Below are positions 37,827 through 47,143 of a DNA stretch of 64,000 nucleotides, piece by piece. Position 1 is the stretch's first letter. The number at the start of each line of letters is the position of its first letter. This DNA comes from Oxalobacteraceae bacterium (GTDB lineage Bacteria > Pseudomonadota > Gammaproteobacteria > Burkholderiales > Burkholderiaceae_D). The stretch spans positions 119,939-183,938 of the forward strand of contig CANCDR010000004.1 in NCBI GenBank assembly GCA_947374865.1. Reading direction: 5' to 3'. The position numbers were made by a program, and so were the translations under genes. The notes under the pieces were generated by a model, which was not told the origin of the DNA, did not search any database, and saw only the letters and a program-made list of their open reading frames with translations.

Positions 37827-39395
37827 TCAAGAATGGTAAGCCGATTCACCGTGGCTGGAAATGTCCAGACCTTCGCGCTCTTCTTCTTCAGTGACCCGCA
37901 GACCGATGACCATGTCGACCAGTTTGTAAGCGATGAAGGAAACTACACCAGACCAGATCAGCGTTGTCAGGACAGCTTGCGCTTGAATCCAGACTTGACC
38001 AGTGATGGAGTAATCAGGAGCGACGGCATTCGTCACGTAATCATAGATACCAACGCCCCCCAGCGATGGTGCTGCAAAGACGCCCGTCAGCAAGGCACCG
38101 GTAATACCACCCACGCCATGCACACCGAATACGTCGAGCGTATCGTCGGCACCGAGCAGACGCTTGAGACCATTCACACCCCACAGGCAGATCACGCCAG
38201 CTAACAAGCCGATGATCAAACCACCCATGACGCCGACAAAGCCAGCAGCAGGCGTAATGGCCACCAGACCAGATACCGCACCTGACGCAGCGCCCAGCAT
38301 GGAAGGCTTACCTTTGCTCAGCCATTCACCCAAGGTCCAGGTAACGGAAGCAGCAGCTGTTGCGAGCAGGGTATTCATGAATGCGAGTGTTGCGCCGCCT
38401 GAAGCTTCGAGCGCAGAACCGGCATTGAAACCAAACCAGCCCACCCACAATAAAGACGCACCGATCATGGTCATGGTCAGCGAATGTGGCGCCATGGCTT
38501 CTCTGCCGTAACCGACACGCTTACCAATGACATACGCACCGACCAAGCCAGCGACAGCGGCATTGATATGCACCACCGTACCACCAGCGAAGTCCAAGGC
38601 ACCCTTCTGGAACAGCCAGCCTGACACAGCTGTCAGCTTTTCAGCTGCGGCAGCGTCGATGAAGCCATCCGGACCAGGCCAGAACCAGACCATGTGAGCG
38701 ATTGGCAGATACGAAAACGTGAACCACAGAACGATAAACGCCAATACTGCAGAAAACTTGGCGCGCTCGGCAAATGCACCGACGATCAGACCGCAGGTAA
38801 TGGCAGCAAAGGTCGCCTGGAAAGCCACGAACACCAACTCAGGAATGGCTACACCCTTAGAGAAAGTGCCGGTTACTGAATCGCCATTCAAGCCCTTGAG
38901 GAAGAGTCGATCGAAGGAACCAATGAAGCTATTGCCTTCTGTGAAAGCCAATGAGTAGCCATAGACTGCCCACAAAACGATAATCACCGAGAAGACCATA
39001 AACACCTGCATCAGTACCGACAGCATATTCTTCGAACGGACCAGGCCGCCGTAAAACAGTGCCAGACCAGGGATGGTCATGAGAATCACCAACACCGTAG
39101 CCATCATCATCCAGGCGGTGTCGCCCTTATTTGGCACGATCGGTGCCGGGGCTGCTGCGGGTGCTGCTTCTGCTGCGGGTGCTGCTTCTGCTGCTGGTAC
39201 TGCCGCTGCTGGTGCTGCTTCGGCTACTGGAGCTACCGCAGGAGCAGCTACTGCTGCAGGTGCAGCAACGACTGCCGGCACATCCGCCTTGGCCGATGGC
39301 GCTTGCGCCAGGACTGTTTGCGAAAATCCGACTGCGAGCAATAAGGCGCCCGCTGCCAGTGATCGCGAAACGATTTGAGAAATATTCTTGTGCAT
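37827..39395 (-). CDS. amtB: AmtB, ammonium transporter
   Basis: AmtB conducts ammonium across the inner membrane under PII control. The 522-residue protein has a signal peptide (near VLAQAP), an extra Ala/Pro/Glu-rich periplasmic segment (about residues 32-88, partly from imperfect 18-base repeats) and then the eleven-helix Amt core: FYGGLVRSKNMLS, SYLPIAHMVWFW and VFGVHGVGGITGALL carry the pore histidines. Downstream of glnK by 11 bases, the classical pairing. The signal and Ala-rich region are common in Burkholderiales AmtB. Confidence 0.95.
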   Translation of the reverse strand: MHKNISQIVSRSLAAGALLLAVGFSQTVLAQAPSAKADVPAVVAAPAAVAAPAVAPVAEAAPAAAVPAAEAAPAAEAAPAAAPAPIVPNKGDTAWMMMATVLVILMTIPGLALFYGGLVRSKNMLSVLMQVFMVFSVIIVLWAVYGYSLAFTEGNSFIGSFDRLFLKGLNGDSVTGTFSKGVAIPELVFVAFQATFAAITCGLIVGAFAERAKFSAVLAFIVLWFTFSYLPIAHMVWFWPGPDGFIDAAAAEKLTAVSGWLFQKGALDFAGGTVVHINAAVAGLVGAYVIGKRVGYGREAMAPHSLTMTMIGASLLWVGWFGFNAGSALEASGGATLAFMNTLLATAAASVTWTLGEWLSKGKPSMLGAASGAVSGLVAITPAAGFVGVMGGLIIGLLAGVICLWGVNGLKRLLGADDTLDVFGVHGVGGITGALLTGVFAAPSLGGVGIYDYVTNAVAPDYSITGQVWIQAQAVLTTLIWSGVVSFIAYKLVDMVIGLRVTEEEEREGLDISSHGESAYHS

Positions 39396-39406
39396 TCTGG
39401 CTCTCC

Positions 39407-39745
39407 TTAAAGTGCTTCTTTGCCGGTTTCACCGGTGCGGATGCGCACGACCTGCTGCAGGTCATAAACGAAAATTTTTCCATCACCGATCTTGCCGGTA
39501 CGGGCCGCTGTTTCAATCGCTTCGATGGCGCTGTCGACGATCGCATCGTCCACAGCCGCTTCGATTTTCGTCTTTGGCAAAAAGTCGACCACGTACTCCG
39601 CACCACGGTACAGTTCCGTATGGCCTTTTTGACGGCCGAAACCCTTCACCTCGGTAACCGTAATTCCTTGCACGCCGATGGCTGACAAGGCTTCGCGCAC
39701 CTCGTCTAACTTGAACGGCTTGATAATGGCGGTAATCAGTTTCAT
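39407..39745 (-). CDS. glnK: PII nitrogen regulatory protein (GlnK)
   Basis: PII proteins sense 2-oxoglutarate, ATP and glutamine status and bind AmtB to block ammonium flow. The 112-residue protein starts MKLITAIIKPFKLDEVREAL, has Tyr51 in the T-loop (the uridylylation site) and the C-loop signature KIGDGKIFVYDLQQVVRIRTGE. The ATG at 39745 is the normal family start; the frame runs 44 codons further into torF without support. Linkage to amtB makes GlnK the better name than GlnB. Confidence 0.95.
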   Translation of the reverse strand: MKLITAIIKPFKLDEVREALSAIGVQGITVTEVKGFGRQKGHTELYRGAEYVVDFLPKTKIEAAVDDAIVDSAIEAIETAARTGKIGDGKIFVYDLQQVVRIRTGETGKEAL

Positions 39746-39758
39746 GCTGACCTCGTAA

Positions 39759-40502
39759 TTAAAAAGTTTTGCTGATGGCGACGACAAAAGATGTTTTGCC
39801 GAGATTTTTGAAATCAGGTTTTGGACCAACGTAGTTCGTGTTGTTGGTACCAATCGCTGCAATGCTAGCGGAAACAATACCGAAGTCTTTGGTGAAACCG
39901 ACCTTCCAATCGGTATAACTGTACATGGTGTTATTTTTTACTGTCTGATGACCCACATGCAGGTTCAGCTGCGTGCCTTCTTCGATATCGATATTGGCGC
40001 CTGCATCGATATAAGTACTATTCTTACTATTAGCAAAGCCGAACAGGTTCGTCATTGAATTGGAAAACTTCAGGTAAGCTGGACCATATCCGACTTGGCC
40101 ATAAATCTCTGTCGTATTCGCATCAGGGGAAAGTTTGTTGGAAGGATAAACGTAACTCAATACGCCCACGTCATAAGAAACGCCTTCAGCGATATCGCCT
40201 CGTTTTCCCGCATACAAGTCGACTTCCAGATCGCCGCTACCGCCGCCGTCCTTGACCCATTTGATCGTCGACAGCCATGTGCCGGCATAGAATCCAGTAG
40301 GATTGTTGACATAGTCCGCGCCGCCTTGCAGTGCTGGCTGCAGACGGGTCTGTGACATACCACGATAGCGGTAGTCGGAAATCAGGGATGCATTGAAGCT
40401 GACTTCATTGTCAGGCTTGGCTTCCGGCTTAGCATCTTCCGCAAAAGCGAAATGGGCTGAGAAAGCAGCAACGATGGCCGCGGCAAGAACAAGTTTTTTC
40501 AT
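39759..40502 (-). CDS. TorF-family putative outer-membrane porin
   Basis: A 247-residue exported protein with signal MKKLVLAAAIVAAFSAHFAFA and the family start VSFNASLISDYRYRGMSQT, followed by amphipathic beta strands and a C-terminal Phe (AISKTF), as in outer-membrane barrels. Such genes commonly precede glnK-amtB in betaproteobacteria and probably aid passage of small nitrogen solutes. First gene of the operon, RBS AGGAGA eight bases before the ATG, driven by the sigma-54 site at 40648-40664. Confidence 0.85.
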   Translation of the reverse strand: MKKLVLAAAIVAAFSAHFAFAEDAKPEAKPDNEVSFNASLISDYRYRGMSQTRLQPALQGGADYVNNPTGFYAGTWLSTIKWVKDGGGSGDLEVDLYAGKRGDIAEGVSYDVGVLSYVYPSNKLSPDANTTEIYGQVGYGPAYLKFSNSMTNLFGFANSKNSTYIDAGANIDIEEGTQLNLHVGHQTVKNNTMYSYTDWKVGFTKDFGIVSASIAAIGTNNTNYVGPKPDFKNLGKTSFVVAISKTF

Positions 40503-46928: not shown

Positions 46929-47016
46929 GATCGCCTATTGAGATTGAAAGAAGCTTCGCATTTCCACTGCCAGCAAAGCCAGAGCAGACGGATGTGGAAA
47001 TATCTTATTTGTCTAT

Positions 47017-47033
47017 TTGCAAGAGATGTGCCA
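47017..47033 (-). promoter_or_regulatory. Sigma-54 promoter of the amine oxidase-cytochrome operon
   Basis: The minus strand reads TGGCACATCTCTTGCAA: TGGCAC, four bases beyond the seven-base -24 block, and TTGCA, with ten bases between GG and GC. It matches the consensus almost fully and lies about 90 bases before the oxidase ATG. Confidence 0.88.
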
Positions 47034-47126
47034 TCAAAAATGCCAGACAACAGTGCAGTATTGACGCGACTTTGCTGCATGACGCTCTATGCGTCTTGTT
47101 CCTGAGCATTGGCGGTGCGTTTGCTT

Positions 47127-47143
47127 CGCACAAGCCTAGTGCG
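47127..47143. promoter_or_regulatory. NtrC-like dyad upstream of the amine oxidase
   Basis: CGCACAAGCCTAGTGCG has perfect five-base arms around seven bases, the GCAC-N7-GTGC layout of NtrC sites, though the inner bases differ from the consensus CAAAATG. It starts about 94 bases upstream of the -24 element. Confidence 0.5.

What the first reader, a model, noticed from the sequence alone, without database searches (positions are those of the whole stretch)
37827..47143. Nitrogen-controlled periplasmic amino-acid/amine deamination module next to amtB
Seen: within 9 kb lie amtB-glnK, an exported RidA, a TonB receptor, a Tat-exported flavin oxidase with the L-amino-acid-oxidase signature and a secreted cytochrome c. 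All three operons carry sigma-54 promoters. Known: such oxidases make imines, RidA turns 2-imino acids into oxo acids and ammonia, AmtB imports ammonium, and cytochromes can reoxidise flavins in this family. Inferred: under nitrogen limitation the cell deaminates amino acids or amines in the periplasm, brings in ammonium and uses the electrons for respiration. I know of no named system of this composition.
Basis: partly seen in the sequence, partly recalled or inferred. Interest (0 to 1): 0.9.

Follow-up and report, generated by a model that had tools for sequence, protein, structure and literature searches.

The report
Periplasmic ammonia scavenging from amino acids
[quoted passage not shown] the proteins are predicted to be exported and would likely strip ammonia from amino acids outside the cell membrane, and most of the relatives examined that carry the enzyme keep the set and the promoter but not the neighbouring ammonium-transporter gene.

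Summary

Corrections: (1) the amtB neighbour is local: a congener has ubiK and yifB adjacent, so the module sits in an insertion; among the loci examined one relative shares the arrangement. (2) The LAAO-cytochrome c-RidA core is in print (Gluconacetobacter lao-cccA-ridA), and periplasmic LAAO nitrogen scavenging is known in Chlamydomonas. (3) NtrC control is not uniform: in two large genera the oxidase promoters lack the exact NtrC cores that glnK promoters of those genera have, and carry unexplained AATAAAGT boxes. The nitrogen role is inferred. New variant of a known kind.

The parts
37827..39395 (-). amtB, ammonium transporter (neighbour, not part of the inserted module)
   Evidence: PF00909 E 1e-122, TIGR00836 above cut-off
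39407..39745 (-). glnK, P-II regulator
   Evidence: PF00543; 98% identical to the congener's
39759..40502 (-). torF, TorF-family putative porin, first gene of the glnK-amtB operon
   Evidence: TIGR02001 above cut-off
40650..40664 (-). sigma-54-type promoter of torF-glnK-amtB (one mismatch, CTGC form)
   Evidence: the CTGC form is found upstream of amtB in 19 of 19 relatives' regions examined
40855..41094 (+). ubiK; left border of the inserted stretch
   Evidence: PF04380, NF047835 match below its cut-off; directly followed by yifB in congener G001
41402..41416 (+). exact sigma-54-type promoter of ridA-tbdr
   Evidence: L031 has an exact site before its ridA too
41554..42093 (+). ridA (Rid3-like) with N-terminal signal sequence, imine deaminase
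   Evidence: PF01042; best PDB 9bka PSPTO3006 E 3e-43, then 9bkc PFL1385; Arg147 in PVRTALQV
42228..44786 (+). TonB-dependent receptor
   Evidence: PF00593, PF07715; no close solved relative (best E 1e-13, plug part only)
44863..44888 (.). terminator-like hairpin between the two convergent operons
   Evidence: read directly; not listed by the scan
44909..45301 (-). secreted single-haem cytochrome c (CAACH at residue 31)
   Evidence: PF13442, PF00034; signal-like start and motif
45315..46928 (-). [quoted passage not shown] 13 bp from the cytochrome c gene
47019..47033 (-). exact sigma-54-type promoter of oxidase-cytochrome c
   Evidence: site found upstream of the oxidase in 70 of 84 family loci
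47127..47143 (-). NtrC-type palindrome CGCACTAGGCTTGTGCG, 109 bp above the oxidase sigma-54 site
   Evidence: position fits the exact cores of relatives' glnK-amtB promoters (89-149 bp); it also scores as a weak terminator
47266..48789 (+). yifB; right border of the inserted stretch

Best explanation
This is a four-gene set encoding an L-amino-acid-oxidase-family flavoenzyme, a cytochrome c, a Rid imine deaminase and a TonB receptor, behind two sigma-54-type promoter sequences, and it would likely release ammonia from L-amino acids in the periplasm for uptake by AmtB when nitrogen is short. Predicted sequence of events: RpoN with NtrC (inferred) turns on both arms together with glnK-amtB; the Tat-exported flavoenzyme takes a hydride from an L-amino acid (inferred from its closest homologue); the reduced flavin passes electrons to the co-encoded cytochrome c and so to the respiratory chain (inferred from adjacency, as in tested members of the wider flavoenzyme superfamily); the exported Rid3-like protein hydrolyses the imino acid to a 2-oxo acid and ammonium (inferred from tested close relatives); AmtB brings the ammonium in. 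The receptor probably brings a larger or scarce substrate across the outer membrane; what it carries is unknown. Shown here: gene content, promoter sequences, their conservation across the family, the predicted fold, and the empty site in a congener. In the two best-sampled genera (those of Duganella and Massilia type) the sigma-54 site is kept but the activator is probably another one.
Against: No expression or enzyme data. The ridA promoter in the window has only an NtrC half-site. The NtrC core is not rare in the window as a whole (3 found, 2.2 expected), so its weight is its position only. Exact cores occur in 4 of 70 promoters (5.7% against 1.5% background), 0 of 23 in g19 and 0 of 39 in g64, although glnK-amtB promoters of these two genera have them in 18 of 18 examined. 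The palindrome at 47127-47143 may be a terminator. amtB is unlinked in the relatives checked except G020. The exact sigma-54 pattern is missing in the named Caulobacteraceae (0 of 11), Halomonadaceae (0 of 5), Bacillota (0 of 20) and Bacteroidota (0 of 22) loci and in 14 of 84 family loci. The bacterial phenotype that I found in print for such an operon is auxin synthesis from tryptophan (PMC5053998). Free amino acids should pass porins (recalled), so the receptor is not explained.
Confidence: 0.66

Rival explanations
1. Sigma-54-controlled amino-acid respiration for carbon and energy, switched on by another (for example amino-acid-sensing) enhancer-binding protein and not by nitrogen status; ammonium is a by-product.
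For: AATAAAGT/ACTTTATT boxes above the oxidase promoter in 21 of 23 g19 and 28 of 39 g64 loci (1.2% of background windows; shuffles of the same sequences mean 0.20 and 0.19 loci; 0 of 19 glnK-amtB promoter regions), while exact NtrC cores are missing there. Four further strong enhancer-binding-protein matches besides NtrC in the window's genome.
Against: The window, L031, L169 and L178 have exact NtrC-type cores, and the window, L031 and L178 lack the boxes. No activator gene recurs beside the module in what was looked at.
Confidence: 0.3
2. Production of 2-oxo acids as signals: tryptophan to indole-3-pyruvate and auxin at plant surfaces, as for the lao-cccA-ridA operon of Gluconacetobacter diazotrophicus.
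For: Same three gene types clustered; lao insertion mutants lose auxin, and cytochrome c maturation mutants make 5% of it (PMC5053998).
Against: That gene product was not compared here with the window's; auxin synthesis does not explain sigma-54 sites with NtrC-type cores or the receptor. It may be a side effect of the same chemistry, as in Chlamydomonas.
Confidence: 0.15
3. An amine dehydrogenase of the NicA2/Pnao kind that degrades a particular amine taken up by the TonB receptor.
For: Tat signal and adjacent cytochrome c are the signposts of that group; NicA2 is among the fold matches (rank 47).
Against: Sequence and fold point to LAAO, and the carboxylate-binding Arg and Tyr positions are kept in 24 aligned oxidases. 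The closest Rid proteins act on 2-imino acids.
Confidence: 0.08
4. The amtB neighbourhood is functional: the module was selected to be co-located with glnK-amtB.
For: Two genera share gshA-amtB-glnK on one side and yifB on the other, at 82% oxidase identity; sigma-54-type sites on both sides.
Against: The congener has the empty ubiK-yifB site beside the same torF-glnK-amtB locus, and in the eight other genomes with both genes on one contig they are 0.13 to 5.2 Mb apart in contig coordinates. Co-location looks like an insertion that happened to land there, possibly once.
Confidence: 0.2

Closest known systems
lao-cccA-ridA operon of Gluconacetobacter diazotrophicus (PMC5053998; abstract and passages seen)
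   Same: [quoted passage not shown] reported there as conserved in Caulobacter crescentus, and I find homologues of the window's oxidase in Caulobacteraceae with cytochrome c (11 of 11) and Rid (8 of 11) nearby
   Different: No TonB receptor, sigma-54 promoter, NtrC site or amtB in the passages seen ('TonB' has 0 occurrences in the text); studied for auxin; its protein was not aligned with the window's
Chlamydomonas LAO1 with RidA-like LAO2 (PMC10805672; passages seen)
   Same: Periplasmic L-amino acid oxidase with Rid partner, induced by nitrogen limitation, ammonium used, keto acids not used as carbon source
   Different: Eukaryote, makes hydrogen peroxide; no cytochrome c partner in the passages seen; other regulation
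NicA2/Pnao-CycN and other cytochrome c-using flavoprotein amine dehydrogenases (PMC12224317; abstract and passages seen)
   Same: Tat flavoenzyme with adjacent secreted cytochrome c
   Different: Found by homology to NicA2, so other clades of the superfamily; 'RidA' has 0 occurrences in the text
Rhodococcus opacus L-amino acid oxidase (PDB 2JAE, 2JB1)
   Different: Described as an oxidase; no cytochrome c or Rid partner known to me (recalled)
Rid3 proteins PSPTO_3006 and PFL_1385 (PDB 9bka, 9bkc; PMC5619798, passages seen)
   Same: Closest solved relatives of the exported Rid protein, deaminate LAAO-made imines
   Different: Not described in the passages seen as part of such an operon

Membership tests
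L-amino acid oxidases (flavin amine oxidoreductase family, roLAAO type) | PF01593 domain and fold closest to a characterised LAAO | tested here: met
L-amino acid oxidases (flavin amine oxidoreductase family, roLAAO type) | carboxylate-binding Arg and Tyr, conserved Lys and Trp | tested here: met
   Arg132, Tyr426, Lys377, Trp516 by sequence alignment; roles from PMC9331233 passages; Arg84/Tyr371 numbering of 2JAE is recalled
[quoted passage not shown]
   needs enzyme assay
cytochrome c-using flavoprotein dehydrogenases | Tat signal peptide on the flavoenzyme | tested here: met
   TTRRDFL at residues 15-21 followed by a hydrophobic stretch, by reading; no signal predictor was run
cytochrome c-using flavoprotein dehydrogenases | adjacent cytochrome c with Sec-type signal | tested here: met
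   13 bp apart, CAACH, hydrophobic N-terminus by reading; cytochrome c within 6.5 kb in 77 of 84 family loci
cytochrome c-using flavoprotein dehydrogenases | fast reaction with cytochrome c, slow with oxygen | not testable with these tools
   needs stopped-flow kinetics
Rid proteins with imine deaminase activity (RidA, Rid1-3) | active-site arginine equivalent to RidA Arg105 | tested here: met
   Arg147 aligned with the arginine of PSPTO3006
Rid proteins with imine deaminase activity (RidA, Rid1-3) | Rid3 subfamily | tested here: inconclusive
   closest solved relatives are Rid3; no tree of subfamilies was built
lao-cccA-ridA operons | LAAO, cytochrome c and RidA genes clustered | tested here: met
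   split here into two convergent transcription units, in line as oxidase-cytc-ridA-tbdr in at least 58 of 84 family loci
lao-cccA-ridA operons | orthology to GDI2456 | not tested
   G. diazotrophicus sequence not in hand; the link is through Caulobacteraceae homologues only
sigma-54/NtrC regulon | sigma-54 -24/-12 element upstream | tested here: met
sigma-54/NtrC regulon | NtrC-binding site upstream | tested here: inconclusive
   exact core at the oxidase promoter, half-site at ridA; no exact core in g19 and g64
sigma-54/NtrC regulon | induction by nitrogen limitation, RpoN- and NtrC-dependent | not testable with these tools
   needs expression data

The most novel reading that the evidence does not exclude
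Bacteria of this family respire amino acids at the cell surface as a nitrogen-harvesting pathway: a sigma-54-controlled exported LAAO dehydrogenase, its cytochrome c, a periplasmic Rid3 deaminase and a dedicated TonB receptor turn external amino-acid compounds into ammonium for AmtB plus electrons for respiration, leaving the carbon as 2-oxo acids. The sigma-54 requirement has stayed fixed while the activator changed, from NtrC in some genera to an unidentified protein reading AATAAAGT boxes in others.
Probability: 0.42. Interest if true: 0.8.

Novelty: new variant of a known kind. Interest (0 to 1): 0.62.

Why it matters
Bacteria are usually thought to import amino acids and deaminate them inside (general knowledge). 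A conserved set behind sigma-54 promoters that would do it in the periplasm, with the electrons going to a cytochrome and the ammonium to AmtB, would be a bacterial counterpart of the algal LAO1 strategy, would give periplasmic Rid proteins a physiological job, and would release 2-oxo acids (auxin precursors among them) to neighbours such as plant roots. The promoter conservation makes the claim directly testable in culturable Duganella and Massilia, and the apparent exchange of activator under a fixed sigma-54 site is a regulatory-evolution question of its own.

Tried and rejected
Amine substrate: rejected as main reading. A dedicated regulator beside the module: a search of the flanking frames of L031-L115 with a profile of four enhancer-binding proteins gave one strong hit (L104, Bacteroidota, about 2.4 kb from the oxidase) and three weak ones (L065, L045, L080); the fetched family loci L165-L244 were not searched this way. 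Clustering of neighbouring frames in 84 loci (14 largest clusters shown) gave no annotated fifth member; the recurring unannotated frames look to me like chance frames of GC-rich DNA, and the two tested had no Pfam match. NtrC consensus with 12 fixed bases was too strict for the window (4 mismatches, p 0.75); the core GCAC-N7-GTGC was chosen after seeing this and then checked on glnK-amtB promoters as positive control. Nitrogen-starvation transcriptome of Paraburkholderia (PMC5748707) and NtrC study of Burkholderia cenocepacia (PMC5491218): main texts searched for terms, no amine or amino acid oxidase named; supplements were not open to me. Print searches for LAAO/RidA operons with sigma-54, NtrC, nitrogen limitation or a TonB receptor; none seen in the listings, which show only the best-ranked papers of an open-access library. 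One search for LAAO residue numbers found nothing. TonB receptor substrate: no close solved relative, not pursued. Rfam and tRNA scans of the window: nothing. The gene order 'oxid ridA cytc tbdr' counted 4 times is probably an artefact of over-long mechanical frames. The sigma-54 count in the 11 named Oxalobacteraceae loci (9 of 11) used a looser anchor; one search is the one to quote.
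Full report
What is there. The window's genes were read and checked against Pfam and NCBIfam. Between ubiK (40855-41094) and yifB (47266-48789) lie two convergent transcription units: ridA-tbdr on the + strand and oxidase-cytochrome c on the - strand, meeting at a terminator-like hairpin near 44863-44888. To the left is torF-glnK-amtB on the - strand. The oxidase has TTRRDFL and a hydrophobic stretch at its N-terminus, the cytochrome c and the Rid protein have Sec-type starts, read by eye; no signal predictor was available.

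Sigma-54 sites. The exact core TGGCAC-N5-TTGC occurs twice in the window, before ridA and before the oxidase (0.28 expected), and ten times in the 3.27 Mb genome, where the reversed pattern occurs five times. Of the other eight, five lie inside mechanically listed reading frames and three between frames, before a pilA-like gene, a second Amt gene and an NrtA/SsuA-like binding-protein gene. torF-glnK-amtB has the CTGC form, as in 19 of 19 relatives' regions upstream of amtB that were examined (glnK was not annotated again in those). RpoN is found once; NtrC passes its equivalog cut-off, with a frame beside it that I take for NtrB from its start (not searched).

Is the module real? The oxidase was sought in 392 genomes of the family; 84 have it at E <= 1e-80, in 14 of 44 genera. 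One locus per genome, the best-scoring, was used (second copies not counted). Of 84, 76 have a Rid gene, 77 a cytochrome c, 77 the receptor family within 6.5 kb, 72 all four, in at least five arrangements; 58 have oxidase-cytc-ridA-tbdr in line. L169 is cut by a contig end. The receptor goes with divergent oxidases: in L034 the receptor is 61% identical to the window's while the oxidase is 40%. In named genomes (80 loci kept of 583 confirmed; 79 counted) Rid and cytochrome c profiles match within 3 kb of the oxidase in Oxalobacteraceae (11 and 11 of 11), Halomonadaceae (5 and 5 of 5), Caulobacteraceae (8 and 11 of 11), other alphaproteobacteria or unnamed Proteobacteria (3 and 5 of 6), a Burkholderiaceae MAG (0 and 1 of 1), Bacillota (20 and 0 of 20), Bacteroidota (0 and 0 of 22) and three others (3 and 0 of 3). 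The profiles were built from proteobacterial members, so a divergent cytochrome c or Rid could be missed; the grouping is mine from record titles.

Promoter conservation. Within 400 bp above the Tat Arg-Arg codons, TGGCA[CT]-N5-TTGC is found in 70 of 84 loci, against 7 of 5571 background windows of the same loci (the background is mostly coding DNA). By genus: g1 1/1, g4 3/3, g6 1/4, g9 0/1, g11 2/2, g15 0/1, g19 23/24, g20 1/1, g21 0/1, g27 0/2, g28 0/1, g32 0/1, g61 0/2, g64 39/40. Two genera dominate the count, so genera are the safer unit: 7 of 14. With one locus for each of these seven, flanking DNA is at chance identity (0.23-0.28) and the N5 spacer at 0.36 (the site's own 0.95 follows from the pattern chosen). 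There are 38 distinct 15-mers among the 70. I conclude that the site is kept by selection and belongs to the module, not to the amtB neighbourhood.

amtB. No amtB lies within about 6 kb in the other fetched family loci, nor within 10 kb of the oxidase in the 79 named loci, of which 57 have at least 8 kb held on both sides. It is present beside L031, with gshA-amtB-glnK on one side and yifB on the other. In congener G001, where no oxidase was found (completeness 96%), ubiK and yifB are 81 bp apart with torF-glnK-amtB alongside and the sigma-54 site kept. The module was therefore most simply inserted next to an older amtB locus; loss from G001 is not excluded. In the eight genomes with amtB and the oxidase on one contig (G019, G404, G297, G407, G360, G351, G129, G366, of 20 searched, G020 aside) they are 0.13 to 5.2 Mb apart in contig coordinates.

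Nitrogen control. An exact GCAC-N7-GTGC palindrome lies 109 bp above the oxidase sigma-54 site in the window; L031 has two, at -142 and -102; L169 and L178 have one each. The core is not rare over the whole window (3 found, 2.2 expected); its weight is its place. As positive control, 18 of 19 glnK-amtB promoters of relatives have an exact core at -89 to -149, and the congener too (20 regions were asked, one was too short). The window's own glnK promoter has only one-mismatch cores, so their lack is not decisive. But in g19 (0 of 23) and g64 (0 of 39) the oxidase promoters have no exact core while glnK-amtB promoters of these genera do (10 of 10 and 8 of 8). Cores with at most one mismatch are commoner than background over all (39 of 70 in 250 bp against 17%), chiefly as TGCATC-N5-GGTGC[AG] in g64; within 220 bp they occur in 27 of 39 g64 and 2 of 23 g19 promoters. 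AATAAAGT/ACTTTATT boxes stand above 21 of 23 g19 and 28 of 39 g64 promoters, against 1.2% of 5168 background windows, a mean of 0.20 and 0.19 loci in dinucleotide shuffles of the same sequences, and 0 of 19 glnK-amtB promoter regions. I read this as sigma-54 control with NtrC in some lineages and another activator in others; the boxes could also be sites of a repressor or of a DNA-bending protein.

What is known and what is new. The LAAO-cytochrome c-RidA cluster was described in G. diazotrophicus, with auxin as output, and noted there in Caulobacter and Xanthomonas (PMC5053998; abstract and passages). Nitrogen scavenging by a periplasmic LAAO is known in Chlamydomonas (PMC10805672, passages). 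Not seen in the listings of the searches made: the sigma-54 promoter, the NtrC-type sites, the receptor as a steady fourth member, and the link to a bacterial nitrogen response. Hence: new variant of a known kind. Steps from promoter to ammonium are inferred; none was measured.

Noticed in passing
upstream of oxidase promoters in L165-L244, e.g. L174, L189, L181: Repeated AATAAAGT/ACTTTATT boxes, often several copies in both directions, above the sigma-54 site in two genera (21 of 23 and 28 of 39 loci; controls); binding protein unknown.
   Followed up: partly
L069-L102 (Bacillota loci): A Rid gene within 3 kb of the oxidase homologue in all 20 Bacillota loci examined, without a cytochrome c match; the three Bacillota Rid proteins printed there begin with signal-like sequences.
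   Followed up: no
L032 (G020:C30): Second oxidase copy (70% identical) divergent from its own ridA, with near-exact sigma-54 sites before both genes.
   Followed up: no
L118 and L122: Second Amt gene and an NrtA/SsuA-like binding protein gene with exact sigma-54 sites in the window's genome.
   Followed up: no
window 48790-52830: Beyond yifB: a TauD-family dioxygenase, two solute-binding proteins of the SBP_bac_6/8 kind and a phosphotriesterase-family protein.
   Followed up: no
L074: Four oxidase-family frames in tandem in a contig labelled Alphaproteobacteria.
   Followed up: no
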